A program made the position numbers and the translations under genes. A DNA stretch of 64,000 nt. Origin: Candidatus Desulfofervidus auxilii (lineage in GTDB: Bacteria; Desulfobacterota; Desulfofervidia; Desulfofervidales; Desulfofervidaceae). The stretch's first letter is position 1; every line of letters begins with the position of its first letter. Under the pieces are notes generated by a model. It was not told where the DNA came from. It worked only from the letters and a program-made list of their open reading frames with translations, and did no database searches. The stretch covers positions 1 to 64,000 of the forward strand of contig JAJSZS010000012.1 in NCBI GenBank assembly GCA_030262725.1. Reading direction: 5' to 3'. Below, piece after piece: positions 1-61,874 of the stretch.

Positions 1-17
1 TAAAGAAATTGTTGTTA

Positions 18-62
18 TCATAAAAAGGATAAAACTAATAAACCTATACTTTTAAGTGCCAT
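18..62 (-). CDS. Possible 14-residue hydrophobic peptide or disrupted gene start
   Basis: An ATG at 62 lies seven bases after a strong ribosome binding site (TAAGGAGGTG, complement of 70-79) and opens a frame of only 14 codons, MALKSIGLLVLSFL, then TGA. A second ATG at 21-19 overlaps that stop in an ATGA arrangement and its frame runs off the window edge (MITTISL...). It could be a leader peptide coupled to the next gene, or a signal peptide broken by a frameshift. The excellent ribosome site is seen; everything else is inference, and the downstream gene is not visible. Confidence 0.35.
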   Translation of the reverse strand: MALKSIGLLVLSFL

Positions 63-122
63 ACTTTATCACCTCCTTAGTTACCAAACTCTATGGGTTT
101 TGACGGAAATTCAAAGTTTTTC

Positions 123-866
123 TCATTGGTTAAAATCTTTAACATAAATTGCATTTTTCTTAGGATTGTTCCGATCATAAACAACAATAACAATTTTATC
201 AAACTTTGATAAAAATTTTGAAAAAGGAAACCATTCTTTAGATTTATAAGTTATGCCTTTCTCGTCAGTAAATTCATAATAAACTGTAGTTCCTGTTTTC
301 TTTAAAATAATCCCTTTTGTCTTTATGCCATTTTTATATAAAAAATTAATTTTTTTCACATCATTAATAATATAAAAAATAACAGCTAAATTTATTAAAA
401 ATAAAAAAATAAAAATACTCATATAAATCCCCCTAGCAATTAAAGGAGATTTGTTATTAACAATAAGGCTTATAGAAGGATTTTCAGGCAAATATTTTAT
501 TTTTATTTTATCGCCTGGATTTATATTATTAAATAATTTTCTCCCTACTTCTTCTTTTTGTCTTATTAATTTTTGTTTTTGATCAAGAAATTCATAATAT
601 ATTAAAGCATAACCACCACGAAATCCCGTAAGTTCTTTTTTAAGAATATGAGCTATTGTAACAATTCCTCTTTTTTTTAAAAGAATATGTTTTTTTCTTA
701 AATTGTAAAAACGCTTTATAGAAACAAAACTGAAAATAAAACTTGTTAAAAAAAGACAAATTAGAATAAATAAGAAACTTTTGCCATATTTTAGCACTAA
801 AATATTCATAAAATATTTTTTTAAAAATTTTTTATTGAAAAAATTTATATAACAAAAGTGTAACAC
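123..866 (-). CDS. DUF3592-like membrane protein next to the RHS gene; candidate immunity protein
   Basis: Two predicted membrane helices (near residues 30-50 and 150-170), each followed by a similar soluble beta-rich segment, including a KIKYLPENPS motif in the first and a VVYDRNNPK motif in the second. This tandem layout resembles DUF3592 proteins. The longest frame opens with GTG at 866, inside the 3' end of the RHS gene (22-base overlap); an ATG at 809 is an alternative and would begin just before the first helix. Neither has a clear ribosome site. Position directly after an RHS gene is where immunity genes of polymorphic toxins usually lie; that role is inference only. No enzyme motif is visible. 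Confidence 0.6.
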   Translation of the reverse strand: MLHFCYINFFNKKFLKKYFMNILVLKYGKSFLFILICLFLTSFIFSFVSIKRFYNLRKKHILLKKRGIVTIAHILKKELTGFRGGYALIYYEFLDQKQKLIRQKEEVGRKLFNNINPGDKIKIKYLPENPSISLIVNNKSPLIARGIYMSIFIFLFLINLAVIFYIINDVKKINFLYKNGIKTKGIILKKTGTTVYYEFTDEKGITYKSKEWFPFSKFLSKFDKIVIVVYDRNNPKKNAIYVKDFNQ

Positions 867-3800
867 CCACCAACGTCACAACCTGCACCTCCACCCCAGA
901 CTCGTGAACAACCAAATGTAAAAGTTAAATCCGGTATCCCTATACAAAGTTGACAACTAATTACCCAAGCACTACAAGAAACACATATAGACCATCCTCC
1001 ACCTGCTTTTTTACAAGTACTAATTCCACCTCCTACCCCTCCACTCTTGCTAATTTTATCCCCTTTTCCTGGTGTACAAATTCCTACACATACTGTCACC
1101 ATGTTCGCACAAGTTATACCACATTCATCTTTACAACAGCCGAATGTGTAAGAAACAGAACCACCAATACCAACATACCAAGGTGTAGGAATACATATGC
1201 TACCACCTCCGCCTGCACCTAATCCCCATGCACCAAGTGGATCTATATAATTAACAGGATTATTAAAAGCATAACTGTAACTTTGGAAACTACAACCTTT
1301 AATACAATATATTAAAGGATCTTTACAGTTAAATCTGCCTATTATTGGATTATAATATCTTAATCTATAAAAGTACAATTCCGAATCAATATCTAACTCC
1401 CGTGAAGTAAATTTATAAGGATTATTTATTGTCCCAGTTTGAGCAGTAATACTTCCAAACGCATCGTATTCATATGCAGTTATCAAGTTTTGAGCAGTGT
1501 CTGTTAATCCAGTCACACTGCCTAGACCATCTTTATGATAATACACAATACTCCCTTCAGCTATCCTACTAATTAAATCATCTATGGTTAAAGTCGTGAC
1601 ATAATGCGCTTTTGTTGCTCCTTCATTATTTAACTCTTGCAGGACATTTTCTCTATCAAGTAAGTAATAAGTTGTCCCACTGCTATCAACCTTTTTAATC
1701 CGCCTTCCATCAGGACTATATGCAAATGAATTTGTTAAACCATTTGGATAGGTAATTCCAATCAGCCTGTTTTCATAATCATATTGATAATTTGTTATCC
1801 CGCTTGCGTCCGTTTTACTAATAGTATTCCCATTATTATCATAGGCAAAAGTCACGTTCCCCGCTTGCAGGAGCCTGTTTGCTGCATCATAGGTGTAATT
1901 AATTACGTTTCCATTGTCATTCATACTCAAACGATTACCAACCGGATCATAGGTATAAGTAACTGTGCGTCCATCTGGATAGACTACTTTTGTTAACCGA
2001 TAAAGCTTATCATATTCATAGGTGGTAACGTCGCCATTTGCCTCCTTCATAGAAAGCCTGTTGCCAACATTATCATAGGTATATTCATAGCTTGAGATGA
2101 TCTCTCCGTTTGATTTTTTGTTGACTAAGGAAAGCAACTCCCCACAACAGCTACTGTAAGTATAAATAGCTTTAGTGCCATTTGGATAAGTGATGCTGAT
2201 GCGCCTACCTAAAGCATCATAGGTAAAAGTAGTCACCCCACCTGTAGGGTCTGTTAAGGAAATTAACCTATTTAGGGCATCATAGGTATAAGTTGTTACT
2301 CCACCATCTGGATCAGTCATAGAAATACGATTGCCTACTTCATCATAGTTATAAGTAATGGTCTTTTCTGGAAGATCAAATATTTTTTCTGTCTTACTGA
2401 TTAACCGATTAAGTGCATCATAAGTAAATGTTGCCTGATAGTTTGGTGAAGTAACAGAAATCAGGTTCCCCACAGCATCATAAGCATATTGCACAGTGCT
2501 TCCATCAGGATATCTAATCCGGATAAGCCTATTTAAAGCATCATAGTCATAATACGTTGTTCGACCATTAGCATCAGTACGACTTATTTTATTACCTACA
2601 GCATCATAGCTATAACGAGTAGTATGCCCTAAAGGGTCAGTAATACTTATTAAACGATTTAACTTGTCATAAGTATAAGTAGTCTTATGTCCGTTGGCAT
2701 CTTTAATGCTGGTTAAATTGCCAACGGCATCATAAGTATATTGGGTTATGCCGCCCTCTGCATCTATTACCTTTATCAAACGCCCATAGATATCATATTC
2801 ATACCTCGTCGTATTTCCGTTAGGATCTGTAACACTGGTTAAATTTCCATTGGCATCATATGTATAAGTGGTCGTTTTGCCGGCGGGATTTATTACTTTG
2901 ACAAGTCGACCTAGGACATCATATTCATAAGTAGTAGTGTTTCCTAAAGCATCTGTTATGCTGGTACGATTGCCCAATATATCATAAGTAAAGGTTGTAG
3001 TATTGCCTAGGGCATCTGTTATACTTGTAAGATTTCCATATTCATCGTAGCTATAATGAGTAGTATTTCCCCTAGCGTCGGTTACGCTTATAAGGTTGCC
3101 CCTCTCATCATAGGCATATTGAGTCACATTGCCCAGAGCATCAATTCGCTTGATTAAGTTTCCACGTTCATCATATTCAAAGGTAGTAGTGTGTCCCAAA
3201 GGATCAGTAATGCTTTTTATTTTATTAAATGTAGAATCATATGTATATGTAATTGTGTTACCTAAGGGATTGGTGGCAGTAAGCAGGTTACCATTAGAAT
3301 CATAAGTATATGTAGTTGTATAGCCACGCTTATCCTTAACACTGGTTCTGTTGAAATTTTCATCCCATGTAAGATAGCTTGAGTTTCCATACGCATCAAC
3401 TTTTCTTGTAAGGTGACCTGTTTCGTCATAATAATAGTAAGTATAATGGCCTCTTGGATCCCTTACCAATGTATAATTAGGATAATAATACAGGTTATAG
3501 GTTCTCCCTTGTTCTGTGTAAGTTTTTACTCTATCTTGGCTATCATAAGTAATAGCTTTTATTACATTGCCATCGTTATTCTTAACCCTTATAAGGTTAT
3601 GATTATCATCATATTCATAATAAATGCTATTACCTGCAGGGTCGGTATATTGAATTAAGTTGCCCGCTTCATCATAGGCATAAGAAAATACCCTTCCGGC
3701 AGGGTCGGTAATGGTGGCAATCTTGCCATTTGGTCCGTAGGAGAATTCTAATTTCCTCCCGGCAGGATCAGTAATGCTTATTAACTTTGCGCCCGAATAG

Positions 3801-4408
3801 GAGAGGGTAACTTTATTACCATTTAAATCCTCAATGCTAGTAAGAAAGCCTTCTTGATTGAAATTATATTTAATTCCTGTGCTTATTTTGGTATATGTAA
3901 AGGTACCATCAGAATTTCTAACTAATGGGTCAGACCACCCACCTTTTGGTGTATAAGTTCCATCTGGATTTTCATCAAATCTTCTTCGCTTGCCGTCTCC
4001 ATCTCTTATAATTACGTAATAGTTTCCTTTACTATCTGTCGTTCTAATAAGCCTGATATTATAAGTAAAGTTCCATCCATAACCAATGGGGCCATTGTAC
4101 CAATCTCGGCTGTGGTATATCCTTGTAATTTCTAACGGAATACGGCCAGGTATAAATAAGTCTTTATGTACATATTCATAATTACCTGTGCTTGCATACA
4201 CGGGAGAGGCTTTTGTAGAAGATTCACATTTTTTAGGTGGTTTTTGTTCTGGTTTTGGAGGTTTAGGCATAGTTGTTTTATGTCCCTGGTCATAAGGATA
4301 ATGCCAGGCATAAGAAGATGATGGTAAATAGGTACCTATAGACCAAAAGATAAATACAAATATTAAAATTTGACTTATATTTTTTTTCCCTTTAAATTTA
4401 CGCAACAT
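845..4408 (-). CDS. RHS/YD-repeat exported protein with cysteine-rich C-terminal tail
   Basis: A protein of about 1187 residues. An N-terminal hydrophobic segment (residues about 12-33) looks like a signal peptide. A DUF6531-type RHS N-terminal domain follows (ASPVYASTGNYEYVHKDLF), then about 33 YD repeats, then the RHS-associated core (YYHKDGLGSVTGLTD, YFYRLRYYNPIIGRF, NNPVNYIDPLG). After the core comes a tail of about 120 residues with 15 cysteines and many glycines. RHS proteins form a hollow beta shell around a variable C-terminal domain that is often a toxin; the tail here matches no toxin family I recognise. The ATG at 4408 is chosen because AGGAGGTG sits 8 bases upstream; a GTG at 4417 falls within that ribosome site. 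The gene lies 16 bases after the PKD-protein gene, so the two are probably co-transcribed. Confidence 0.88.
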   Translation of the reverse strand: MLRKFKGKKNISQILIFVFIFWSIGTYLPSSSYAWHYPYDQGHKTTMPKPPKPEQKPPKKCESSTKASPVYASTGNYEYVHKDLFIPGRIPLEITRIYHSRDWYNGPIGYGWNFTYNIRLIRTTDSKGNYYVIIRDGDGKRRRFDENPDGTYTPKGGWSDPLVRNSDGTFTYTKISTGIKYNFNQEGFLTSIEDLNGNKVTLSYSGAKLISITDPAGRKLEFSYGPNGKIATITDPAGRVFSYAYDEAGNLIQYTDPAGNSIYYEYDDNHNLIRVKNNDGNVIKAITYDSQDRVKTYTEQGRTYNLYYYPNYTLVRDPRGHYTYYYYDETGHLTRKVDAYGNSSYLTWDENFNRTSVKDKRGYTTTYTYDSNGNLLTATNPLGNTITYTYDSTFNKIKSITDPLGHTTTFEYDERGNLIKRIDALGNVTQYAYDERGNLISVTDARGNTTHYSYDEYGNLTSITDALGNTTTFTYDILGNRTSITDALGNTTTYEYDVLGRLVKVINPAGKTTTYTYDANGNLTSVTDPNGNTTRYEYDIYGRLIKVIDAEGGITQYTYDAVGNLTSIKDANGHKTTYTYDKLNRLISITDPLGHTTRYSYDAVGNKISRTDANGRTTYYDYDALNRLIRIRYPDGSTVQYAYDAVGNLISVTSPNYQATFTYDALNRLISKTEKIFDLPEKTITYNYDEVGNRISMTDPDGGVTTYTYDALNRLISLTDPTGGVTTFTYDALGRRISITYPNGTKAIYTYSSCCGELLSLVNKKSNGEIISSYEYTYDNVGNRLSMKEANGDVTTYEYDKLYRLTKVVYPDGRTVTYTYDPVGNRLSMNDNGNVINYTYDAANRLLQAGNVTFAYDNNGNTISKTDASGITNYQYDYENRLIGITYPNGLTNSFAYSPDGRRIKKVDSSGTTYYLLDRENVLQELNNEGATKAHYVTTLTIDDLISRIAEGSIVYYHKDGLGSVTGLTDTAQNLITAYEYDAFGSITAQTGTINNPYKFTSRELDIDSELYFYRLRYYNPIIGRFNCKDPLIYCIKGCSFQSYSYAFNNPVNYIDPLGAWGLGAGGGGSICIPTPWYVGIGGSVSYTFGCCKDECGITCANMVTVCVGICTPGKGDKISKSGGVGGGISTCKKAGGGWSICVSCSAWVISCQLCIGIPDLTFTFGCSRVWGGGAGCDVGGCYTFVI
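1700..3835 (-). repeat. YD (RHS) repeat array within the RHS gene
   Basis: About 33 coding repeats of roughly 63 bases (21 codons), with the protein consensus NTTTYTYDxxGNLTSITDPxG. The DNA copies are diverged (different codons), so the array is held by protein selection rather than recent tandem duplication. One unit (near residue 770) is interrupted by a CCGELLSLVNKKSNGE segment, a common variant in RHS proteins. The repeats are expected to build a spiralling beta-sheet cocoon. Confidence 0.9.
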
Positions 4409-4424
4409 AATTTGCACCTCCTAC

Positions 4425-6923
4425 TTAATAGAATAAAATTACATGTGCGTATCTGGTTAAAGAATGATTTCCTTGGTTGTCTATAGCTTTAATGCCTATA
4501 TGATAGGCAGTATCAATAACATATTCTCCAACCTCATTTTTTCCATCCCAAGTAATAGTATTTTCACCAGCAGGTAGATTGCTTTGGGAGATGGTTCTTA
4601 CCAATGTATTATTAGAATCATAAATTTTCACAATTACATTAGCTGTTTTAGATAAAGTAAAGGAAATATTTAATTGTCTAAAACCTGTAGGTATAGGTTC
4701 GTCAGGGCAATAATAATTTGGATCTGCTGAAAGATCAGTAATCTCTGGTTTGCTTCCTTCTACAACGACTCCGTTAGGAGATATATCATAAGACCAAATG
4801 GTCACTAACCATCGTGTGTTTGGAGGAACCATCGTGCCATCGTCCTTCATCCCATCCCAATAAATGGTATGAGAACCTCTTCCTTGAGGTTCAAATTGTA
4901 AAAGTGTCCTTACCCTTTCTCCATAATAGCTATAAGGGCAAATATCTGCGACTACTTTGCTCGCTACCGGTACATTATAGGTAATGGTACAGAATTGATC
5001 CTCATAAGGGGCAAATGTAGATGGAAAGCTCGCGCTATAACCACCAATAGAACGCCTCGTACCTGTTATACCTGTTCCTGTTAAATCATAAGTTTGGCTA
5101 AGCCCACCTGGCATAATAGCCTCAGCCACGAAATAATACACACCATCGGGAACGATATTACCATGGTTATCTGTTCCATCCCAAACATCTTCGTAGGTAC
5201 CAGCAGTCCTCTCCTCGCCATTTACTAAATATCTCACTATTTGACCATTACTATCTTTAACCAAAATATTTATAATAGCGCTGCCAGAATATTGCGTAGT
5301 TATCGTAACTGTATCTCCTTGAGAGGGATTTATAGTATCTTTATCCCTGCTCAAGGAGAGTATAATGTTCACATTAATCCTTATACTTGCATACCCCTCC
5401 ATTCCCGCTTCATCTATGGCTTTTAAAGTAGCATCAAAAATACCACCTTCATAATAAGTATAAGTCACATCTGCTGAAGTCTCTGAGCTCCAGTCAAATA
5501 TACCATCATTATCAAAATCCCATTCGTATCTAATTATATTTCCATTGGGACTAGTAGCACTGCCAGAAAAATGAACTGTTAATGGTGCACTTCCATTTGT
5601 TGGAGAAGCACTTACATTAACAGTAGGAGAACCTGCGGGTTGTGGTCTGATAATAACAGAAGAAGTAGCTGTAGCATTAGCTACATCTGTTACCTTAAGA
5701 GTAGCATAAAATGTGCCTACTGAATAATAAGTATAAGAAGTGTCAGGAGAAGTATCTGATTCCCAATCATATACCCCATCACCATCAAAGTCCCACTCAT
5801 ATTTAACAATAGCCCCATTAGGACTACTAGCTGTGCCTGTAAAGTTTACAGTTAAAGGAATAGGTCCATTTGTAGGGGTAGCACTGGCTGAAACCACAGG
5901 AGGAGCACTAGAGACCGCAATAGTAATACTGGCCTCATCTGTTAGCCCAACATTATCTATTACCTTTAAAGTAGCTTGATAAACACCAGGAGTTCTATAG
6001 GTATATTTACTTGTAGTAGGAATATAATCAGTCCTATCATATATACCATCTCCATTGTAATCCCATTGATAACGAATTACAGTGCCTACTGTATCTATTG
6101 CTTCAGGGGTAAAAGTTACAGTTAAAGGGACAACCCCACTTGTTGGAGAGGCATGGGGAATAGCTTGAAGTGGTTTTACAGTAAATTTAGATGTAATAGT
6201 AGAAGTATTTCCTGCATAGTCACTGATTTGAGCAGTAATTACATTTTCTCCTATAGGCAAATCAGTTACAACTTGATAGGTAGCTTGAGTATCAGTAATT
6301 GCAAATAGACTAGTACTATCTACCCCATTTATTTCTACATAAAAAGTTGTTGAATCTATGCCAGACTCAGCATCAGAATAAGTGATTACAATTTGAGGTT
6401 TTGTTTCAGTTATAACTGAACCATCTTGAGGCGAAATAGAAATACTAGGAGGTACTGTATCTGTAGGAGGCCCAGTAATAGAAATTTCAACATCTCCATA
6501 GGCTAGACTTCCAGCAGCATTATAATAAGTAGCACCCTCTGAATCTTTTATTTCTATACTTACATAATCTGGTGAACCATCTGTTACCTCAAAAATAAAT
6601 GTATATCCACTAACTCTGTTTACTATACATTCACCTTTAATAGTAGCCTTGTTATCGGAAACAATAAATGATGTAATAGAAGCACTGGCAACTATTAATC
6701 TTATTTCCTGATCAGTATATTTTAGCAAACCACTTGGAGCAGCTTCTCCTGCTGTATAGTTTACATCCACTTGAAAAGTACATCTATACCTACCTTTCAT
6801 AAACCAGCCACCACCAGTAGCACTGCCTGGGATATTTGCAAAAGTTTTATGGGAAAGGAGAAAAAATATAATGAATAGGAAAAAGAGCAATATTTGAATC
6901 TTACTTTTTAAATTACTTTTCAT
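4425..6923 (-). CDS. Exported multi-domain protein with three PKD domains and FlgD-like modules
   Basis: About 832 residues. A lysine-rich N terminus and long hydrophobic segment ending near TFANIPG is a signal peptide. Then comes a GGGWFMKGRYRCTFQVDV domain, an Ig-like domain (PPSISISPQDGSVI), three PKD domains each with the W-D-(F/Y)-(D/N)-G-D-G core (YQWDYNGDGIYD, YEWDFDGDGVYD, YEWDFDNDGIFD), and at the C terminus FlgD-type Ig modules (AGTYEDVWDGTDNHGN, PAGENTITWDGKNEVG). Such proteins act at the cell surface or in the periplasm in adhesion or assembly. Two ATG codons (6950, 6923) each have their own GGAGG site; 6923 gives the normal signal peptide. It is probably the first gene of an operon with the RHS gene. 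Confidence 0.8.
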   Translation of the reverse strand: MKSNLKSKIQILLFFLFIIFFLLSHKTFANIPGSATGGGWFMKGRYRCTFQVDVNYTAGEAAPSGLLKYTDQEIRLIVASASITSFIVSDNKATIKGECIVNRVSGYTFIFEVTDGSPDYVSIEIKDSEGATYYNAAGSLAYGDVEISITGPPTDTVPPSISISPQDGSVITETKPQIVITYSDAESGIDSTTFYVEINGVDSTSLFAITDTQATYQVVTDLPIGENVITAQISDYAGNTSTITSKFTVKPLQAIPHASPTSGVVPLTVTFTPEAIDTVGTVIRYQWDYNGDGIYDRTDYIPTTSKYTYRTPGVYQATLKVIDNVGLTDEASITIAVSSAPPVVSASATPTNGPIPLTVNFTGTASSPNGAIVKYEWDFDGDGVYDWESDTSPDTSYTYYSVGTFYATLKVTDVANATATSSVIIRPQPAGSPTVNVSASPTNGSAPLTVHFSGSATSPNGNIIRYEWDFDNDGIFDWSSETSADVTYTYYEGGIFDATLKAIDEAGMEGYASIRINVNIILSLSRDKDTINPSQGDTVTITTQYSGSAIINILVKDSNGQIVRYLVNGEERTAGTYEDVWDGTDNHGNIVPDGVYYFVAEAIMPGGLSQTYDLTGTGITGTRRSIGGYSASFPSTFAPYEDQFCTITYNVPVASKVVADICPYSYYGERVRTLLQFEPQGRGSHTIYWDGMKDDGTMVPPNTRWLVTIWSYDISPNGVVVEGSKPEITDLSADPNYYCPDEPIPTGFRQLNISFTLSKTANVIVKIYDSNNTLVRTISQSNLPAGENTITWDGKNEVGEYVIDTAYHIGIKAIDNQGNHSLTRYAHVILFY

Positions 6924-6979
6924 AATGTTTCCTCCAAATTTACTTTTCATAAAAACTTCCTCCAAAAATTACTTAAGAA

Positions 6980-7156: not shown

Positions 7157-7690
7157 TCAAGAAAAATTTTGTCTTCTAATTTTCTTTCTAACTAGAGCAA
7201 GACTAGCTAAACCACTTCCTATAAGTAATAAAGTGGCAGGTTCTGGAACAGGACCTACGGTATTGCCAAATGCATAGTCATCAGGATAAGCAGCACCCCA
7301 TGCACCAGCATCATAGGTAATCGTTCCAGGGGAGCCATAGCTTTTAAATGAAAATCCTGAAAGAGAACCACCCGGGGCAATATCATAAGTAGGCCAAGTA
7401 GAATACCATTCAACCCAATTACCAGCAACCATATAATCCCAGCCTGTAGGTGAAACAATGTCAAAAACAGAAACAGCAGGAAATAGGTCAAAAATTCCTA
7501 CATAATCTGGACTATTTTGGTCATTTGCTATTTCATAGTTATATGTATATACAGCAGTAACAGGATCATATGTGACTGTTGTATTCACATGCACAATGGG
7601 AATGGCTAAAACCAATCTTGAGATGACTATAATTGTAAGTACTGCTATAACTATTGTTAAAAACTTTATTTTTTTCACCGCTTTCTTCAT
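7157..7690 (-). CDS. PEP-CTERM sorting-domain exported protein
   Basis: 177 residues: an N-terminal signal sequence (hydrophobic residues about 9-30), a small beta-rich body, and a C-terminal PEP-CTERM signal made of VPEPATLLLIGSGLASLAL plus a basic tail (VRKKIRRQ). Such proteins are cut and anchored by an exosortase and are usually linked to exopolysaccharide or biofilm. No exosortase gene is in this window. The ATG at 7690 is chosen because GGAGGG lies four bases upstream; a longer frame to 7747 lacks a ribosome site. A TATAAA (about 7708-7713, minus strand) could be its -10 box. The body has no domain I recognise. Confidence 0.85.
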   Translation of the reverse strand: MKKAVKKIKFLTIVIAVLTIIVISRLVLAIPIVHVNTTVTYDPVTAVYTYNYEIANDQNSPDYVGIFDLFPAVSVFDIVSPTGWDYMVAGNWVEWYSTWPTYDIAPGGSLSGFSFKSYGSPGTITYDAGAWGAAYPDDYAFGNTVGPVPEPATLLLIGSGLASLALVRKKIRRQNFS

Positions 7691-8145
7691 ATTACCCTCC
7701 TTCTTCTGTTTTTTATACCTTTCAACACAAGAATCAAAATTTTTCATATTTATTAACTACAAATCTCGTCCTGCTTCATGAGAAAGAGATTTCCCATAAA
7801 ATGGAAAATATTTTCCTTTTAAATATATAGATTTTTTCTATAAAATAAGACTTAATCAAATAGTTATGTGAAAAAGATTTCCATAGATGAAAAAAATTTA
7901 TCAAGAAAAAAATTTTGATGTTTTTAAAAATTACCTTAAAAACCTTAAACAAAAGCAACTTTCTACCCCCACTTTATGTAAATGATTGTGCAATAAATAT
8001 GCCAATAATTCTAGTTTTAAACTTTTAGCAGTAGTAATAATATGAAAAATCATTTTTTAAATAGTCTGCTAAGACTTTTAAGGCTTTATATAATCATTTT
8101 TATCATTAACTTGTATATAACAAAGTTTTTATTTTTAGCTAGCAA
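7691..8145. other. AT-rich intergenic region, no gene seen
   Basis: About 455 bases between the divergently placed PEP-CTERM and ubiD genes, very AT-rich and rich in short A and T runs. I see no convincing ORF, RNA gene or terminator. An imperfect direct repeat, GAAAGAGATTTCCCATA near 7782-7798 and GAAAAAGATTTCCATAG near 7870-7886, and an isolated TATAAT at 8089-8094 (plus strand, no good -35) are the only patterns noted. Confidence 0.5.
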
Positions 8146-28006: not shown

Positions 28007-29191
28007 TTATTTTTTAAGCCCGCCTACGGCCTCAGCTATCTTCCATACATGATCTGTGTACTTAAATTGTGTTGTTGTTCTATATGTATCATAGGCCAGG
28101 CGGTAATCATCAAGTAAATGCCAAGTAAATGGTATTTCACATAATTCAAAGAATCTTTCCCAACCAATCCTTTCTGCCCATTCTCCAAGTCTTTCATATT
28201 TTCTAGCATGTTTAGCATAAACCTCAACAATCTTTCTAATAGTCTTTGTTACTTCTGGCCAACGTGGTGGATTATTAGGTAAATAGTCTACAACTACTTT
28301 AGAGAATTTAGGACCACTCTTTCTATTTGAAATTTTTCCTCCTGCAAGGATAACTATACCATCACCTTCTTTATCTGCTAATGGTGTAGCCATACACATT
28401 GTATAACAATTTCCACAGAACATACATCTTTGTTCATTTACTCTAACTGTCTTTGTCCCATCTTCCAAAGTTACTGGACGAATGGCACCTAAAGGACAAG
28501 CAGCTACTACTAATGGAATTTCACAAACTTTTGATATTACCTCATCATCAATCATAGGTGGTTTACGATGATAACCAAGAATAGCAATATCAGAACAGTG
28601 AACTGCTCCACACATGTTTAAACAACAGGCAAGAGATACTCTTAATTTCGCTGGCAGTGTCATGCTCTTAAAATAGTCAAATAATTCATCCATAACAGAT
28701 TTTACCACACCAGATGCATCTGTAGCTGGTGTATGGCAATGAATCCAACCTTGGGTATGAACAATATTTGTAATAGAACAACCTGTGCCACCTACTGGAA
28801 ACTTATAACTACCTGCAGGGAATTTTCTGCTTTCTAAATCTTTCTTTAATTCTCTAGCTTTTTCTTCGCTATCGGTAATAAACTCAACACAATTGCGTGT
28901 TGTCCATCTAACATAACCATCACAATATTTATCTGCAATATCACAAATCTCACGTATATGCTCAGCAGTCATTAATCTAGCACCACCAACCCTTACCGTA
29001 TATACCTTTTCACCTGTTTCAGAAACATGCATTAAAATCCCTGGTTCTAATATTTCATGATATAACCATTTTCCATAATTCCTCCTAATAATAGGAGGGA
29101 AAAACTGCCAATAATGTGGTGGCCCAATATCTGTAATCCTATTTTCTAATGGTTTTTCTGGATCATAATAACCATATTTCCCTTTAGACAT
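28007..29191 (-). CDS. dsrB: Dissimilatory sulfite reductase beta subunit
   Basis: 394 residues. It has the siroheme/4Fe-4S residues ([19 protein letters not shown] region), [24 protein letters not shown], and a ferredoxin domain with [12 protein letters not shown]. With DsrA it forms the cytoplasmic alpha2beta2 enzyme that reduces sulfite, passing the sulfur to DsrC. AGGAGGTG precedes the ATG; 15 bases separate it from dsrA. Confidence 0.97.
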
Positions 29192-29206
29192 AGCACACCT
29201 CCTTTT

Positions 29207-30646
29207 TTATCTTGGATGTCTCTTTCTAAATTCTTTAATATCTCTCTTCCACCCACCAGGCACTTCTTCTTCTTTCCAATAAATATATGGGTTAGAGCGA
29301 GGTTCTTTTACCATCTGTGGTGCTGGTGGTATCTCAAGAATTTCTGTAACAAACCGCCACAGACCCCAACGCTGAATTAATTCACCTAAACGCTCACGAT
29401 TCTTACCTTCTTCCATCCACCAATCCCAAACTTTTTCAACAATTGCCTTTATATTATCATAAGGCTTTTCTGTATACATAAATGGGATACCTACTAAAGA
29501 CATCTGCGCACCTTCAAGAATAGGTGCTTTAGCACCAAAAAGGATGCTTAAGCCTGTATCTACACCTGGTCTTAATGCCCTTGGCATAACAGCAATACAA
29601 TGCATACAACGTACACATTCTTTATTATCAATCTTTAATTCCTTCCCATCCCATTCCATACATTGGGCAGGACAGAGATCAATTACTTCTTTTTGAATAT
29701 CAAATGGACCCCAATCTCTGTCTCTAAAAGCACCTCCATTAGGTGGAATTTCTCCTGCTACATACGCTCTTACTGCTTCTTGATCAATGCGAATTTCATC
29801 TTTCCAAGTACCAATATAAGACATATCTGCTCTAGCAATACTAGCTACACAGCAGTTTGGACAACCATCAAACTTAAATTTAAATTTATATGGAAATGCT
29901 GGTCTATGTAATTCATCTTGATAATACATAGTCATTTCATAACACATATCCTGTGTATCTATCATAGCCCATTCACACCTTGCCTTCCCAATACAACAAG
30001 AAGGAGTTCTTAAATTTGAACCAGAACCACCTAAGTCAACACCCAAATCATGGGTTAAATCAAAGAATATAGGTTCTAATTGTTCAGTAACAGCTCCTAA
30101 AAAGACAGTATCACCAGTGGAACCATGCATGTTTGTAACACCACTACCACGATATTCACAAATGTCCATTAAACCTCTTAAATAATCTGTGTTATAAAAC
30201 TTACTAGCAGGCTGATTAATCCTAAGAGTATGAAATGCCCAAATTGCAGGAAATTTCTCTTGCTGATCAGAATATCTACCAATTACACCACCTCCATAAC
30301 CAAATACACCAATAATTCCACCATGTTTCCAATGAGTTTCTTTATCTATATAAGAAAGCTCAAGCTGACCTAATAAATCTTCACAACATTCTACTGGTCC
30401 TTGCAAATTCTCTTGCCCAAGTTTACGCCTATGTAAAGCCTCTCTTTTTAAATCACTAACAAAGCTAGGCCAAGGTCCTTTCTCTAGCTCTTCAAGCATA
30501 GGAATATCATGTTTGATTTTAAATTCTTTTAATTCTTCTTCAGTATAATTGTGTAATTGTTCGTCAGTAAAAATCCTTATATCTTCATAAGTTCTATGAC
30601 CTTCTACTTCTTTATCCCACATTTTTTCTTGCCCTTCAGCTGCCAT
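29207..30646 (-). CDS. dsrA: Dissimilatory sulfite reductase alpha subunit
   Basis: 479 residues, a little longer than many DsrA because of an N-terminal extension (MAAEGQEKMWDKEVEGHR). Siroheme-linked cluster cysteines are in TPSCCIGKARCEWA and DGCPNCCVASIARADM; the ferredoxin domain is CVRCMHCIAVMPRALRPG. It has its own promoter (30751-30779) and an unusual leader with three Shine-Dalgarno-like sites and a short upstream ORF. The functional ribosome site is GGAGG at 30655-30660. Confidence 0.97.
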   Translation of the reverse strand: MAAEGQEKMWDKEVEGHRTYEDIRIFTDEQLHNYTEEELKEFKIKHDIPMLEELEKGPWPSFVSDLKREALHRRKLGQENLQGPVECCEDLLGQLELSYIDKETHWKHGGIIGVFGYGGGVIGRYSDQQEKFPAIWAFHTLRINQPASKFYNTDYLRGLMDICEYRGSGVTNMHGSTGDTVFLGAVTEQLEPIFFDLTHDLGVDLGGSGSNLRTPSCCIGKARCEWAMIDTQDMCYEMTMYYQDELHRPAFPYKFKFKFDGCPNCCVASIARADMSYIGTWKDEIRIDQEAVRAYVAGEIPPNGGAFRDRDWGPFDIQKEVIDLCPAQCMEWDGKELKIDNKECVRCMHCIAVMPRALRPGVDTGLSILFGAKAPILEGAQMSLVGIPFMYTEKPYDNIKAIVEKVWDWWMEEGKNRERLGELIQRWGLWRFVTEILEIPPAPQMVKEPRSNPYIYWKEEEVPGGWKRDIKEFRKRHPR

Positions 30647-30692
30647 ATCTTTTACCTCCTTCTTTTGTTTTTGGATTTTTCAAATTTACCAT
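30636..30692 (-). CDS. Short upstream ORF in the dsrA leader (18 codons)
   Basis: ATG at 30692, reading MVNLKNPKTKEGGKRYGS, ends 11 bases inside dsrA (stop 30638-30636). A Shine-Dalgarno AGGAGG lies 14 bases upstream (30707-30712), a longer spacing than usual. The dsrA ribosome site (GGA GGT) is inside this ORF, so translating ribosomes would cover it and end beside the dsrA start, allowing coupling. It is real as a sequence; use is unproven. Confidence 0.35.
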   Translation of the reverse strand: MVNLKNPKTKEGGKRYGS

Positions 30693-30706
30693 ATTTTTTA
30701 ACCAAA

Positions 30707-30779
30707 CCTCCTTTAACTTCCACCTCCTTCCTTCTTCTGTTGTATTTTCAAATATAATCTGCTCTTTCATTTTTGTCAA
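30707..30779 (-). promoter_or_regulatory. dsrA promoter and leader with orphan Shine-Dalgarno sites
   Basis: Minus strand TTGACA (30779-30774), 17 bases, TATATT (30756-30751): near-consensus. The -35 box begins about nine bases after the qmoC stop. GGAAGGAGG (complement of 30723-30731) begins 20 bases after the -10 box, about +14, with no start codon at a suitable distance. A second AGGAGG follows at 30707-30712. Leader length about 98 bases. Confidence 0.82.
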
Positions 30780-30787
30780 GAAAAAAT

Positions 30788-31906
30788 TTATACTTTTCCA
30801 TAATATCTTTCATGAACCATCGCCACTGTTCTATAAACAAGATGAGCAAATTTGGAATAAGGTAAGTAAACAAAAAGTGTAAATACAAAGCCTACATGTA
30901 TTAAATATGAACCATAAGCTAATTTTGCAATATGAATTAATCTAAAAAACTCTGCACAAAATCCAGTGATACCTACTGCTAAAATAACAATAATTAAACT
31001 CCAATCCCAATAAGTAGAAACAGTTTGTTTATCTTGTATTCTATTAATAAGAATAGTTAAAATTCCAATAAGAAGAAGTATTCCACCTAAATTAGCCAAA
31101 ATCTTTACAGGATGGCTTAATGGGAATGGTATTTCTATATGAAGAATATATTCAGCTAACACATCTATAGAAGTTACAATAGCTAAGGCAATAAAACTCC
31201 ATAATAGCAACATATGAGGTAATGCTCTACCTTTATTTGCCTCACATTTATAAAAACGGCTATGAGCTAAAATTTCTTTTAAAGTTGATATAATTATGCC
31301 TATCCATCCTCCTTTTAAAATCAACTGAAATCTACTTGGTGGTTCAAGTCCTTCACTCATGTCATCCCAAAATTGTTTTATGCTTTTTACTAAAGAAACA
31401 ATAAGAAAAAAAGTAAGGGGAAGAAAGACAGCATCTATATAATAAGTAGGCAAGAAATTAGAAGGACGAATTTCTTCTCCAGTTGGTCTGTGTCCAGTAA
31501 TTGCAAGTAGAAGCAATAGAATAACAATAGGAAATGCTATTAATAATGGAAGAGATTTAGGAGTCTTTACAAAATTCACTAACCATTTTGGACGTGCATA
31601 TTCATTAATTACATATGCTCTAATAGCAGCTAGAACATCACCTGGTCGTGCACCACGTGGGCAATAAAGAGAACAATCATTACAATTATGACATAACCAT
31701 ACTGCAGGATCCTTCACTAACTTATCTTTCTGACCCCATTGAGCAAGAATCATCTGTCTACGTGGAAATGGATTTTCTTCTGGTGCAAGTGGGCAGACTA
31801 CTGCACAAGTAGCACACTGAAAACATTTTTTTACCGAATCCCCACCTAATTCTATTATGCCCTTAATAAAATTTACATCTGGCTCCACCACACGACCATT
31901 TGCCAT
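30788..31906 (-). CDS. qmoC: Quinone-interacting membrane oxidoreductase subunit C
   Basis: 372 residues. The N-terminal HdrC-like part has two CxxCxxCxxxC clusters (CFQCATCAVVCP and CHNCNDCSLYCPRGARPGD); the C-terminal HdrE/NarI-like part has about six membrane helices with several histidines for heme b. It takes electrons from menaquinol in the membrane and passes them to QmoAB for APS reduction. It starts 12 bases after qmoB. No terminator was seen before the dsr promoter, so some dsr transcript may come from qmo readthrough. Confidence 0.95.
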   Translation of the reverse strand: MANGRVVEPDVNFIKGIIELGGDSVKKCFQCATCAVVCPLAPEENPFPRRQMILAQWGQKDKLVKDPAVWLCHNCNDCSLYCPRGARPGDVLAAIRAYVINEYARPKWLVNFVKTPKSLPLLIAFPIVILLLLLAITGHRPTGEEIRPSNFLPTYYIDAVFLPLTFFLIVSLVKSIKQFWDDMSEGLEPPSRFQLILKGGWIGIIISTLKEILAHSRFYKCEANKGRALPHMLLLWSFIALAIVTSIDVLAEYILHIEIPFPLSHPVKILANLGGILLLIGILTILINRIQDKQTVSTYWDWSLIIVILAVGITGFCAEFFRLIHIAKLAYGSYLIHVGFVFTLFVYLPYSKFAHLVYRTVAMVHERYYGKV

Positions 31907-31918
31907 CTTAAACCCTCC

Positions 31919-34162
31919 TTACCATCCTTTAAATGGATTGGGACCTAACTCTTTAATTCTAGCAATAAAATTATCAACAATTTCAGGTAGCTTATTATAA
32001 TCAGTAATTGCTACCTGAACTAATTGCGCCCTTTCTGCTTCAAGACCTAAATTATCTAATGTCTCCTGAAGCTTACCCATGCGATAATTAGCAAGTTCAC
32101 TACCTCTTACAAAATGACACTGATAATCATCTCCATATTTGCAGCCCAAGAGTAAAACACCATCTATACCACGAGATAAAGCGTCTGAAATAAAAACAAG
32201 ATTCACAGAACCAAGACAACGGACAGGTATCACTCTTAACAATGGTGAATAATGCAAATGATTAATTCCTGCCATATCTAAAGCAGGATAAGCATCATTT
32301 TCACAAGCAAAACAAAGAATTCTCAATTTCTCTTCATCATCTTCAGGTACAGATATAGCTTTAATCATAGAAGAAATAATATCTATATTATAATTTTGGA
32401 AACCAACAATCCTTTCAGGACAAGCACCCATACATACACCGCAACGGCGACATCTAAAAACATTAGGTTTAGGTGTACCTTTTTCATCCTCATCAAGGGC
32501 ACCAAATGGACATTCTTGTGTACAACGTTTACATTGTGTACATCTTTGGAAGAAAAATACAGGAAAGCTTAAATCACCTGCTCTTGGATGAACAGCTCCA
32601 CCACGAGATTCTAATTCCATACACTGGATAGCTTTTAAAGCAGCACCAGTAGCATCTCTAATACATCCATCAATATCTAAAGGTTGACGGACACAACCAG
32701 CTGGATAAATACCTGTGCGTCTTGATTCATATGGGAAACAGATAAAGTTTGAATCAGCTAAACTGTATTTTAAAACAGGTACTTCTGGTCCTTGACGATA
32801 AGCTAAGTTCAAAATACCTTCCCAAGGTTGGGGTGTTTCTGCAATAGTTTTTTCAATTACTTCTGGCTCCTCTTGACCAGTTAAACCATATCGTTGAAAT
32901 ACCTCTTCACGAGTAGTAGGTAATCCTTCCATAGTAGATACCATTCCTATAGCTAATACTACAAGGTCTGCTTTTACTGTAATTTTTTCACCAAGAAGGG
33001 TGTTATCTACTTCAACATTTAAAGTTTTATCTTCATTTTCAGTAATACCAACTATATCACCTTTTGTAAGGAAGATACCTGGATCATTTTGTGCATTTTT
33101 ATAGAATTCTTCATATTGACCTGGTGTACGCATATCTCGATAAAAAATATATGCTTTTGCTTCACTATTTAAAGTACGCACATACATAGCTTGTTTCAAA
33201 GATACTAAACAGCAGTAAGAGGAACAATAAGGTAAATGATCTTTATCTCTTTGACCAGCGCATAAGATAAAAACTACATTTTTAGCAGGTTGACCAGTAG
33301 CAGGAGATGTTATTTGGCCTTTTTTGGCCATTTCTTCCATTTCAATATTTGTAATTACATTTTTAAATTTTCCATAACCAAGATGCTCCAACTTATTAGC
33401 ATCATAAGGTTTAAAACCTGTTGCTAAAATAATTGTGCCAACAGTTATTTGTTCTGTACTGCTTCCCTTTAATGTAACTTTAAAATGACCTGGTTGCCCT
33501 TCTGTTTTTTCAATTGTAGTAGAAGTATAAACTTTAATTTTTGGATGAGTTTGGACTGCTCTAATTTTTTCTTCAATTCCCGTATCCATTAATTCTTTAT
33601 AAGGTGGAGAGCTAGGATATGTTTTCCACCATTTTGCTACCCATCCACCTAATTGAGCCTCTTTTTCTATTAATATTACATCATAATTAGCATTAGCTGC
33701 CTCAAGAGCAGCTGTTAAACCTGTAATACCACCTCCAACAACAAGAATGGTTTTATTATATGGCTCTTCCTCTGAATAACCAGTTGGAATCTCCACCTTT
33801 TGTGCTTTAGCAACAGCCATCCTTAAATAATCTTCTGCCATTTCTTGAGTAAAATCATTTTTAGGAGATTGACACCAAGCTACTCCCTCTCTTATATTTG
33901 CTCTCTCTACAACTATCTCTGGCCCAAAATTAAAAACATCCCAATTTACACGATGAGAACAAGCAGCAATAATAACCGTATTAATCCCTTCCTTTTCTAT
34001 ATCTTCTTTAATTAATTTTAATCCATCTGCTAAACAAAGGCTTTCGTGTGTTTTACACGGCAATTTTAATTCTTCTGTTACTACTTGGGAGAGTTTTTCT
34101 ATATCAATTGCATCCCCAATACCACACCCTGTACAAATATAAACACTAAGTTTTTTTTCCAT
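31919..34162 (-). CDS. qmoB: Quinone-interacting membrane oxidoreductase subunit B
   Basis: 747 residues, HdrA-like. After an N-terminal CTGCGIGDAID segment comes FAD-binding ILVVGGGITGLTAALEA (about residue 145), HdrA-type CSSYCCLVSLKQAMYV, two ferredoxin clusters (CTQCKRCTQECPFGALD, CRRCGVCMGACPERIVG), and an MvhD/FlpD-like C-terminal domain (GVLLLGCKYGDDYQCHFVRG). It is the electron-transfer core of Qmo between the membrane subunit and AprBA. It is eight bases from qmoA. Confidence 0.95.
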   Translation of the reverse strand: MEKKLSVYICTGCGIGDAIDIEKLSQVVTEELKLPCKTHESLCLADGLKLIKEDIEKEGINTVIIAACSHRVNWDVFNFGPEIVVERANIREGVAWCQSPKNDFTQEMAEDYLRMAVAKAQKVEIPTGYSEEEPYNKTILVVGGGITGLTAALEAANANYDVILIEKEAQLGGWVAKWWKTYPSSPPYKELMDTGIEEKIRAVQTHPKIKVYTSTTIEKTEGQPGHFKVTLKGSSTEQITVGTIILATGFKPYDANKLEHLGYGKFKNVITNIEMEEMAKKGQITSPATGQPAKNVVFILCAGQRDKDHLPYCSSYCCLVSLKQAMYVRTLNSEAKAYIFYRDMRTPGQYEEFYKNAQNDPGIFLTKGDIVGITENEDKTLNVEVDNTLLGEKITVKADLVVLAIGMVSTMEGLPTTREEVFQRYGLTGQEEPEVIEKTIAETPQPWEGILNLAYRQGPEVPVLKYSLADSNFICFPYESRRTGIYPAGCVRQPLDIDGCIRDATGAALKAIQCMELESRGGAVHPRAGDLSFPVFFFQRCTQCKRCTQECPFGALDEDEKGTPKPNVFRCRRCGVCMGACPERIVGFQNYNIDIISSMIKAISVPEDDEEKLRILCFACENDAYPALDMAGINHLHYSPLLRVIPVRCLGSVNLVFISDALSRGIDGVLLLGCKYGDDYQCHFVRGSELANYRMGKLQETLDNLGLEAERAQLVQVAITDYNKLPEIVDNFIARIKELGPNPFKGW

Positions 34163-34169
34163 TTTAGAA

Positions 34170-35423
34170 TTACCTCCTCACAATGGATTGAATGGCTTTA
34201 AGTGCTGCTGCTGTAGCGTCTTGAACTGAAGAAGCCACATCCATTGGTCTTTTAGCACATCCAGCAGGATAAATACCACTATCAGAATTAGAAACAATAA
34301 AATTAAAATCATCATAAGAAACATCGGCTGGGACTTTTTCCTCAGCCGTTACTGGCATCATGCCAGTAGCAAGGACTACCATATCTACTTCTTGTGATGT
34401 TCTTTTGCCAGATAAAATATCTTCAGCCTCAACTAATAAACTTTTATCAGGTTTTTCAGTGATTTTTGCCACTTTTCCTTTAATAAAATAAACATCCTTA
34501 TATTCTTTTATCCGATTATAAAAATCTTCAAAACGGCCATATGCTCTTAAATCAATATAAAAGATATAAACTTTAGCATCAGGATATTGTTCTTTAACAT
34601 ATCCAGCCTGTTTCATGGAGGCTAAACAACAAATTGCTGAACAATAAGGTAGGTGATTTTCATCACGTGAACCTGCACATTGGACAAATGCTATACTCTT
34701 TATTTCTTTATTATCTGAAGGTCTTAATATTTTCCCTTTTGTTGGGCCATTTACAGCTGCCAGTCTTTCCATCATAACATTAGTGATAACATTTTTATAT
34801 TTACCAAAACCAAGGTTATCCATTTTAGTTGCATCATAGGGTTTCCAACCTGTAGCCCAAATAATGGCACCTACTTTTAAATTTACTGTTTTTTCTTTCT
34901 CCTCTAAATTTATTGCTTTATAAGCGCATGCCTGAACACATTTACCACATTTGTCACATACAGTATCATCTATTACATATTTAGCAGGAAAAGCCATTTC
35001 ATGTGGCAGATAAATAGCTTTTGTCTTTGAAAGACCATAATTAAATTCATCATCTCTTTCTATTGGGCAAACCTCAACACATTTTCCACAAATAGTACAA
35101 TTGTTATTAACATAACGAGGTTTCAATTTTATAGTAACATCAAAATTGCCTGCTTGACCTGAAATCTTTTCTACTTCAGCTAAAGTAAAGAATTTTATAC
35201 GTGGATTGTCTTTAATACGCCTAAAATTTATTTCTAAACCACAATAGGGAGGGCAAAGTTTCGGGAAATAATGATGTAACTGAGCAACTCTTCCGCCAAG
35301 ATACGGCCGCTTTTCAACAAGAATAACATCATAACCAACCTCACCAATCTCTACTGCTGCTGTTAAACCACTCATGCCCCCACCAACGACTAAAATAGTT
35401 TGCGTACTTTTTCCCTCTGCCAT
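34170..35423 (-). CDS. qmoA: Quinone-interacting membrane oxidoreductase subunit A
   Basis: 417 residues, HdrA-like flavoprotein: FAD motif ILVVGGGMSGLTAAVE near the start, CSAICCLASMKQAGYV, and two Fe-S cysteine sets (CTICGKCVEVCP, CDKCGKCVQAC). It is a cytoplasmic partner of QmoB and is expected to contact AprBA. It follows a strong terminator after aprA; no clear separate promoter is visible in the 66 bases between terminator and start, so expression may be by readthrough. Confidence 0.95.
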   Translation of the reverse strand: MAEGKSTQTILVVGGGMSGLTAAVEIGEVGYDVILVEKRPYLGGRVAQLHHYFPKLCPPYCGLEINFRRIKDNPRIKFFTLAEVEKISGQAGNFDVTIKLKPRYVNNNCTICGKCVEVCPIERDDEFNYGLSKTKAIYLPHEMAFPAKYVIDDTVCDKCGKCVQACAYKAINLEEKEKTVNLKVGAIIWATGWKPYDATKMDNLGFGKYKNVITNVMMERLAAVNGPTKGKILRPSDNKEIKSIAFVQCAGSRDENHLPYCSAICCLASMKQAGYVKEQYPDAKVYIFYIDLRAYGRFEDFYNRIKEYKDVYFIKGKVAKITEKPDKSLLVEAEDILSGKRTSQEVDMVVLATGMMPVTAEEKVPADVSYDDFNFIVSNSDSGIYPAGCAKRPMDVASSVQDATAAALKAIQSIVRR

Positions 35424-35473
35424 TCTAATCCTCCACTTATTCTTTACCCGTCAACATCGAATTCGTGATAAAA

Positions 35474-35514
35474 AGAAAAAATTAAAAAACCGGGTGCCCT
35501 TAAGGGCACCCGGC
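35474..35514 (-). terminator. Intrinsic terminator between aprA and qmoA
   Basis: A perfect palindrome, arms 35490-35499 and 35504-35513 (CCGGGTGCCC/GGGCACCCGG) around TTAA, followed on the minus strand by T-rich bases. It lies about eight bases after the aprA stop. It should set apr transcript levels above qmo. Confidence 0.92.
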
Positions 35515-35521
35515 ATATTAA

Positions 35522-54859: not shown

Positions 54860-55767
54860 TAATTTCTTTCTTGAAGGGATTTTAAAAGAGAAAATTCACC
54901 TTTTTCTAGAGCTAATTTTTTAGAAATATTAAAATTTTGTTCTGCTTTTCTTTCCATTCCTTGTTGTTGATAAAATATACCTAAGTAATAATAAACATAA
55001 GGATTGGTTGGATCTAAAGCAAGTGCTTTTTGAAAATAATAATTTACTTTATTTAATTCTCCTGTCTTCCAAGCAATTACTGCTAAATTAATCATAGCCA
55101 TCACATCATTTGCCTCTAAAAAATATTTTTTTGCTTCCTCAAATTTTTTTTGTTTTAGGTAATTTACTCCCAATGCATTAAGTAAGGTTTTATCCTTTGG
55201 AACATATTGATAAGCAAGAAGTAAATCTTTTTGAGCTTTTTCAAAATTACCAAACATTTGCCAAATAATACCCCTATTGATAAGGGCTTCAGGATGAGCA
55301 GGATTAATATTTAAAATTTTATTGTATATTTTTAAAGCTTTATCTAAATGACCCAACTCCATTTGATAATAAGCTTGTTTTAAAAGGGCATTTAAATTTA
55401 TTGATTGTTTTTGTTTTAAAGAAATTTTTTTCTTAATTTTTCGATTTTGCCTTTTTGATACATTTTTTTTAATTTTTTTAGGATAAACATTTGATTGAGG
55501 AGCAGAGGTTGGTTTTACAATTTGTAATTTTCTATTAGGTAGTTTAATCTCTGATTTTTCTATTGTTTTTATTAAAATAGGTTTTGATATCTTTTCTGTC
55601 CTAAACTTTTTCCATCCCCATGTTGTGAAAATTATAATACATAAGAATATAGTTATTCCTATATAAAAAATTGGAAATCTCTTTTTTTCTTTTAAAAATA
55701 TTTTTATTTCTTTTTGTTCTGAAACTTCTTTTTTTGCTTTATTTAAGGCTTCTTCAATCAAACTCAT
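54859..55767 (-). CDS. Membrane-anchored TPR protein of the MSHA-like cluster (MshN-like)
   Basis: 302 residues: cytoplasmic [14 protein letters not shown] start, one membrane helix (about 31-50), a basic Lys-rich linker, then TPR repeats (about 125-290; [41 protein letters not shown]). The arrangement matches MshN, which follows mshM in MSHA loci. The start overlaps the ATPase gene by four bases. Confidence 0.75.
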
Positions 55768-56573: not shown

Positions 56574-56575
56574 TT

Positions 56576-58483: not shown

Positions 58484-58851
58484 TTTAACGAAACTTTATA
58501 TATTTTTTTGCCTTTACGCAGTAAAATACACTTTTTTTTAATTTTTATAATTTTGAATCCATATATTGTTTCACCCTCTTTTATACTTTTTCCATCAAAA
58601 ATGGCTTTTTTATTTTTGTCTGTTATAATAATACCTTGAAGTTTTGGTAACTTATTCAAATTTCTTAAAAATGAAACCCACTCCCTTTCTTGCCAAGAAA
58701 GAAATGGCTCTTTATAAGAATGTTTTTTTATTTTCTCTAAATATGTTTGAACTTCTTTTAATGAAATTGATTCAAAAGCAAAGATATTTGCTATAGCAAA
58801 AAAACAAAGAGAAATAATTATTATGTATTTACAAACGATAAGCAAATTCAC
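58480..58851 (-). CDS. Small exported protein, MshK/PilP-like
   Basis: 123 residues: N-terminal signal/anchor (about 5-25) and a short domain ending GFKIIKIKKKCILLRKGKKIYKVSL, which resembles the beta-strand HR-like domain of PilP/GspC proteins that bind secretin. Identification rests mainly on position between the PilO-like and secretin genes. It overlaps both neighbours. Confidence 0.6.
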   Translation of the reverse strand: MNLLIVCKYIIIISLCFFAIANIFAFESISLKEVQTYLEKIKKHSYKEPFLSWQEREWVSFLRNLNKLPKLQGIIITDKNKKAIFDGKSIKEGETIYGFKIIKIKKKCILLRKGKKIYKVSLK

Positions 58852-61873: not shown

Positions 61874-61874
61874 T

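What the first reader, a model, noticed from the sequence alone, without database searches (positions are those of the whole stretch)
123..4408. RHS protein with a 15-cysteine tail followed by a DUF3592-like membrane protein
Seen: after the RHS core the tail of about 120 residues holds 15 cysteines and many glycines, with two similar (S/T)(Y/F)TFGC segments, unlike any RHS toxin domain I know. The next gene overlaps it and encodes a two-helix membrane protein. Known: RHS C termini are variable and often toxic, with the immunity gene directly downstream. Inference: this may be an undescribed toxin/immunity pair acting at a membrane, or a disulfide- or metal-stabilised surface domain.
Basis: partly seen in the sequence, partly recalled or inferred. 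Interest (0 to 1): 0.62.

Follow-up and report, generated by a model that had tools for sequence, protein, structure and literature searches.

The report
Exported RHS protein with cysteine-rich tail
A sulfate-reducer-type bacterium carries an exported RHS protein, of the kind bacteria often use as weapons, whose tip is unusually rich in cysteine and resembles nothing we could find, followed by a membrane protein that may protect the cell from it.

Summary
RHS protein 845-4417(-) ends in a 128-residue tail; its last 120 residues hold 15 Cys and 26 Gly, no His, and two TFGC segments that belong to a longer internal duplication. The tail has no relative in any collection searched and no Pfam, NCBIfam or PADLOC match. 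The protein has a signal-peptide-like start, and the genome lacks the T6SS sheath protein VipB, so Sec export is likely. Downstream is a two-helix membrane protein with weak but above-cutoff DUF3592 matches; the reported overlap depends on a GTG start and is probably not real. Its best relative is a 38% paralog in the same genome, at a LemA locus without RHS. Across the phylum DUF3592 is usually away from RHS (49 of 50 matches examined). One other genome family shows the same order (PKD/FlgD-type gene, signal-peptide RHS, cysteine-containing tail, DUF3592), so the pairing may be real but is weakly supported. Best reading: a Sec-exported RHS polymorphic toxin with an orphan, probably disulfide-stabilised tail acting outside the cytoplasm, and DUF3592 as candidate immunity protein. 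Toxicity and immunity are untested. New member of a known kind.

The parts
845..4417 (-). RHS/YD-repeat protein, 1190 aa from GTG 4417 (ATG at 4408)
   Evidence: Pfam RHS_repeat x24, DUF6531; TIGR01643, TIGR03696
4307..4408 (-). signal-peptide-like N terminus (basic, hydrophobic stretch, SSYA|W), read by eye
   Evidence: translation; hydrophobic 19-residue window 1.72; no signal-peptide predictor was run
1232..1468 (-). RHS-associated core (end of the shell), with three extra Cys near its end
   Evidence: TIGR03696; Cys positions
848..1231 (-). Cys/Gly-rich tail, 128 aa, 15 Cys, 30 Gly, 0 His
1130..1216 (-). internal repeat copy 1, ending in SYTFGC plus two residues
902..1006 (-). internal repeat copy 2, ending in TFTFGC plus two residues
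123..809 (-). DUF3592-like two-helix membrane protein (228 aa from ATG; 247 aa if GTG 866 is used); candidate immunity gene
   Evidence: Pfam 29 bits vs cut-off 25.3; two hydrophobic helices; codon signal
4425..6965 (-). upstream gene, 846 aa: post-COAP-1 domain, PKD and FlgD_ig modules; probably same operon (16 bases from the RHS ATG)

Best explanation
This is a Sec-exported RHS (YD-repeat) polymorphic toxin of a Gram-negative, sulfate-reducer-type bacterium. The RHS repeats would form the usual shell around the tail, and the tail would be released outside the producing cell or in the envelope of a neighbour. The tail is a small Cys/Gly-rich domain built from a duplicated unit; outside the cytoplasm its cysteines would be held in disulfides. 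Having no recognisable enzyme motif and a hydrophobic composition, it most likely acts on the envelope (membrane or periplasm) rather than as a nuclease. The downstream two-helix DUF3592 protein would sit in the inner membrane and neutralise it. Shown: RHS architecture, tail composition, duplication, absence of relatives, downstream membrane protein. Inferred: export, disulfides, toxicity, target, immunity.
For: RHS repeats, DUF6531 and the RHS-associated core directly before the tail; signal-peptide-like start and no T6SS VipB in the genome (0 of 1, control genome positive); secretin, T2SSE and T2SSF-type genes in the same window. The tail is unique while the shell is common: RHS core in 62 of 197 other relatives, tail in none. 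Same order (PKD/FlgD-like gene, signal-peptide RHS, tail with 7 Cys, DUF3592) in a distant genome of the phylum. Among 62 other RHS tails with a neighbour, tails with 7 or more Cys per 120 residues are followed by a protein with 2 or more predicted helices in 5 of 5 cases against 19 of 57 (Fisher 0.007; the cut-off was chosen after looking, and cut-offs 4-6 gave 0.03-0.08). Printed precedents: signal-peptide-bearing bacterial teneurin-like proteins with a membrane-active C terminus and downstream immunity genes (PMC13018210, passages); an RHS pore-former, Tse5 (PMC10684867, passages); two-helix immunity proteins of CDI ionophores (PMC11630599, passages).
Against: No toxicity data. DUF3592 is usually not next to RHS (49 of 50 matches examined), and the closest relative is a 38% paralog at a LemA locus. 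The tail could not be folded (pLDDT 31). The tail of the other RHS-DUF3592 case is not detectably homologous (not among the best). The contig ends 122 bases beyond the DUF3592 gene, so a further downstream gene may be missing. The four same-family and one same-order genomes lack an RHS core, so no close comparison exists.
Confidence: 0.42

Rival explanations
1. The tail is a toxin or other effector domain, but the DUF3592 gene is an unrelated envelope protein; the real immunity gene is elsewhere, for instance beyond the contig end.
For: Paralog of this DUF3592 in a LemA locus of the same genome, no RHS there; 49 of 50 DUF3592 matches examined are not near RHS; the contig ends 122 bases after the gene; AT-rich gene (22% GC) next to a 41% GC tail.
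Against: The gene is the immediate downstream neighbour on the same strand, and a second genome family shows the same order.
Confidence: 0.22
2. The tail is not a toxin but a disulfide-stabilised surface or adhesive domain at the tip of an exported RHS shell, as in an adhesin.
For: Operon with a PKD/FlgD_ig/post-COAP-1 surface-type protein; no enzyme-like motif; Gly/Cys-rich duplicated sequence; same operon type in another genome.
Against: Placement directly after the RHS-associated core, where described RHS proteins carry toxin domains; the tail is unique while the shell is shared, the usual sign of toxin diversification.
Confidence: 0.22
3. The tail binds a metal or an iron-sulfur cluster through its many cysteines.
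For: 15 Cys including CVSC and CQLC pairs (positions, sequence).
Against: No His and no recognised Fe-S or zinc family; the protein is probably exported, where disulfides are the usual fate of Cys.
Confidence: 0.08
4. The tail is a degenerate remnant or assembly artefact at a contig end.
For: Lies about 850 bases from a contig end; no relatives anywhere searched; a signal-like ORF cut short by a stop follows at the very end.
Against: Open frame with coding bias, 8 and 10 stops in the other frames; in-frame with the RHS core; internal duplication kept.
Confidence: 0.06

Closest known systems
Bacterial teneurin-like proteins (TLPs), PMC13018210
   Same: Signal-peptide-bearing YD-shell proteins with a small variable C terminus (one membrane-active only when exported) and a downstream immunity gene (passages)
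   Different: TLPs are defined by FN-plug, NHL and YD-shell domains; here only a weak, sub-cutoff TEN_YD-shell match (38.1 bits vs 50) and no FN-plug or NHL match; tail differs
RHS effector Tse5 with immunity Tsi5 (P. aeruginosa), PMC10684867
   Same: RHS shell, tail of similar size, membrane-acting tail (passages)
   Different: Tse5 is delivered by T6SS; this genome has no VipB match and the protein has a signal-like start; similarity to the Tse5 tail was not tested apart from the family and PDB scans
CDI ionophore toxins with two-helix CdiI immunity proteins, PMC11630599
   Same: Two-helix hydrophobic immunity protein next to the toxin (passages)
   Different: CdiI proteins are 72-100 residues; this one is 228 and carries DUF3592 stretches outside the helices; the toxin carrier is RHS, not CdiA
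RHS locus of genome G041, contig C56 (L087)
   Same: PKD/FlgD-type gene, signal-peptide RHS with Pro-rich linker, tail with 7 Cys, then DUF3592
   Different: Tail 214 aa, no detectable homology to this tail; its DUF3592 protein is 343 aa with a different layout

Membership tests
RHS polymorphic toxin | RHS/YD repeats forming a shell | tested here: met
   24 RHS_repeat stretches, 568 bits; YD_repeat_2x
RHS polymorphic toxin | RHS-associated core directly before the variable tail | tested here: met
   TIGR03696 65.3 bits vs cut-off 32.5; the curated PF03527 RHS model is below cut-off
RHS polymorphic toxin | C terminus variable between relatives sharing the shell | tested here: met
   Tail absent from 197 other relatives and 394 others of the phylum, while RHS core is in 62 of the 197 others
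RHS polymorphic toxin | Adjacent specific immunity gene | tested here: inconclusive
   A downstream gene is present; its pairing with RHS recurs in 1 of 50 examined DUF3592 matches
RHS polymorphic toxin | Toxic C-terminal domain | not testable with these tools
   no bench data; no known toxin family matches
T6SS-delivered RHS effector | T6SS in the genome | tested here: not met
   0 of 1 for VipB in a genome rated 99.99% complete; control E. coli positive
Teneurin-like protein (TLP) | FN-plug, NHL and teneurin YD-shell domains | tested here: not met
   only TEN_YD-shell, 38.1 bits below its 50-bit cut-off
DUF3592 (PF12158) | match above Pfam's gathering score | tested here: met
   29 bits vs 25.3 over two stretches; but not reached in the whole-genome scan at E 0.001

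The most novel reading that the evidence does not exclude
A new class of exported RHS toxins whose Cys/Gly-rich, disulfide-built tails act on the envelope of neighbours, with DUF3592 membrane proteins recruited from a LemA-linked housekeeping family as their immunity proteins, in anaerobic sulfate-reducer-type bacteria without T6SS.
Probability: 0.2. Interest if true: 0.62.

Novelty: new member of a known kind. Interest (0 to 1): 0.38.

Why it matters
If the tail is toxic, it would be an RHS effector domain built on disulfides rather than an enzyme fold, and would give a first role to DUF3592, a domain named in only 1 of 5.39 million held papers. It would also show RHS-based antagonism by Sec export in a bacterium without T6SS. 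If it is not toxic, it is one more variable RHS tail of unknown role.

Tried and rejected
Relatives of the tail: genome contigs, plasmids, PDB (one hit at E 0.033, not pursued), viral contigs (17), phages, 198 relatives (14) and 395 phylum genomes (46). The seven weak rows and three were rejected: eight of the ten carry internal stops in the matched frame (G036 is in both calls), and the other two (L027, L030) lie antisense to longer ORFs.

Relatives of the DUF3592 protein: genome contigs, viral contigs (59), plasmids (60): none. Relatives: two weak hits besides the paralog.

Homology between this tail and the other RHS tails: shuffle scores gave two at 1 of 200 shuffles, about what so many comparisons would give by chance; a two-copy repeat profile found nothing else below E 0.8. 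The Cys-rich tails of L126 (G088) and L087 (G041) look alike in composition only.

G388, of the same genus as G041, was examined to see whether the tail changes while DUF3592 stays: its contig C41 begins inside the DUF3592 gene, so nothing can be said; the G041 tail was not found in G388.

Structure: the tail alone gave pLDDT 31; the DUF3592 protein pLDDT 54. Neither was used for a fold search because confidence was too low. Tail and DUF3592 were not folded together.

Counts come from 72 loci (82 core-tail rows, window included), chosen as best-scoring or long RHS frames, not at random; one search used 63 of the 82 rows and dropped 19 (open or short tails, no ORF within 150 bases). Two of the five Cys-rich cases (L059, L100) come from one genome. 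Earlier regular-expression passes missed many tails and were replaced.

Full report
What is there. The RHS ORF (845..4417, minus strand) is 1190 residues from its GTG and starts more plausibly at the ATG at 4408. It begins with a basic, hydrophobic, signal-peptide-like stretch (by eye; no predictor was run), a short Pro-rich linker, DUF6531, 24 RHS repeats and the RHS-associated core. After YIDPLG come 128 residues with 15 Cys, 30 Gly, 4 Asp, 1 Glu, 6 Lys, 1 Arg and no His; all 15 Cys are in the last 120 residues. All 15 Cys codons are TGT. Three more Cys sit in the last part of the core.

The two TFGC segments are the ends of a longer duplication: AGGGxSIC...W...IG...TFGC occurs twice, about 70 residues apart. 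The score between halves was reached in 28 of 2000 shuffles, and two such motifs in 0 of 2000; the split into halves was made after seeing the motifs, so the first figure is only indicative.

Is it more than chance? Given 1.6% Cys in 23 long ORFs of the window, 15 of 120 has a probability near 1e-9 for one stretch. Among 81 other RHS tails from the phylum, the highest count per 120 residues is 11, then 10, 9 and 9. The frame is coding and the alternatives are full of stops. So the feature is real. Against uniqueness of composition: one of 45 other stop-free stretches of the window reaches 12 Cys in 120 codons, non-coding frames included.

Relatives. The only copy of the tail is this one: 0 of 197 other relatives and 0 of 394 others of the phylum have a credible match (weak hits rejected as described; the two sets overlap), and none was found in genome contigs, viral contigs, plasmids or phages. 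The two contig scans use exact short peptides and reach close relatives only. No family in Pfam, NCBIfam or PADLOC, and nothing useful in PHROGs (best E 0.41), matches the tail. The genome has one RHS gene; the four same-family genomes and the one same-order genome have no RHS core.

The downstream gene. It encodes two hydrophobic helices with DUF3592 stretches scoring 29 bits against a cut-off of 25.3, in a gene of only 22% GC. Its closest relative is in the same genome, contig C60, 38% identical over 226 residues, between LemA-like genes on a 4.3-kb contig with no RHS (LemA named from recall of its sequence, not from a scan). The DUF3592 family occurs in 43 of 395 phylum genomes, 51 matches. 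I looked around 50 of the 51 (one, G346, was not fetched): one, G041 contig C56, lies directly behind an RHS gene; the other 49 show no RHS in the flanks fetched, some of which were cut by contig ends, one of them inside the DUF3592 gene itself (G388 C41). The window's own pair is not among the 51 because it falls below the scan's threshold.

The G041 case. Its order is a PKD/FlgD-like gene, an RHS protein with signal-like start and Pro-rich linker, a 214-residue tail with 7 Cys, then a 343-residue protein with DUF3592 at 51.7 bits (PKD/FlgD in that locus read by eye). This repeats the window's order from the upstream gene onward. By rough arithmetic of my own (20 DUF3592 matches in 198 genomes; about 160 RHS cores; about 3000 genes a genome, assumed), chance adjacency would be expected well under once (about 0.005). 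That favours a real link between some RHS genes and DUF3592, but it rests on one independent case, and the two tails are not detectably homologous.

A wider pattern, to be taken with caution. In 62 other tail-neighbour pairs, all five tails with at least 7 Cys per 120 residues precede a protein with two or more predicted helices, against 19 of 57 for the rest (Fisher 0.007). Cut-offs of 4, 5 and 6 gave 0.037, 0.077 and 0.028, the cut-off was not fixed beforehand, and two of the five come from one genome. It would fit Cys-rich tails acting outside the cytoplasm and being blocked at the membrane.

Mechanism. The genome has no T6SS sheath protein VipB, so delivery by T6SS is unlikely; Sec export, perhaps followed by the type II/IV-pilus-like machinery seen at 56-64 kb, is the likeliest route. 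Published precedents exist for each step: exported teneurin-like YD-shell proteins with toxic C termini and downstream immunity genes, one of them membrane-active only when exported (PMC13018210, passages read); an RHS tail that forms pores (PMC10684867, passages); two-helix immunity proteins against ionophore toxins (PMC11630599, passages); and effectors that need disulfides made by DsbA (PMC5792426, passages). What is shown here is anatomy; export, disulfides, toxicity and immunity are inferences.

Literature. Searches for DUF3592 with rhs and immunity, for DUF3592 alone (1 paper, unrelated by its title and the start of its abstract), for cysteine-rich rhs with polymorphic toxin, and for rhs with disulfide and immunity terms listed no paper that, by title and abstract start, names such a tail or DUF3592 as an immunity family; I read only listings and the passages named.

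Verdict. The pair hypothesis is plausible, with one supporting case and a family-level pattern that speaks against it. Filed as a new member of a known kind (exported RHS polymorphic toxin, toxicity untested).

Noticed in passing
window 28007-37429: Sulfite-reductase-type pair, FlpD/Pyr_redox_2 and FAD proteins in a row, the layout of a dissimilatory sulfate-reduction cluster (dsrAB, qmo, apr named from recall).
   Followed up: partly
window 55764-63584: Secretin, T2SSE with MshEN, T2SSF and AAA_22 genes: a type II secretion or MSHA-pilus-like export set on the same contig as the RHS gene.
   Followed up: partly
window 7157-7747: Small protein with a PEP-CTERM sorting motif (29.6 bits) upstream of the RHS operon.
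   Followed up: no
L032 (G000:C60) 2479-3231: Second DUF3592 protein of the genome, 38% identical, flanked by LemA-like genes, suggesting a non-RHS role for this family.
   Followed up: partly
L126 544-948 and 948-1319: RHS tail with 11 Cys and 21% Gly in genome G088, overlapping a four-helix protein with a sub-cutoff DUF2157 match; similar style, no detectable homology.
   Followed up: partly
L100 463-798 and L059 1732-2070: Two further Cys-rich RHS tails (10 and 11 Cys) in genome G051, each followed by a 95-97 residue two-helix protein.
   Followed up: no
window 1-80, minus strand: Good ribosome-binding site and ATG, then a 14-residue signal-like reading frame ending in a stop at the contig edge; perhaps a damaged or misassembled gene start.
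   Followed up: no
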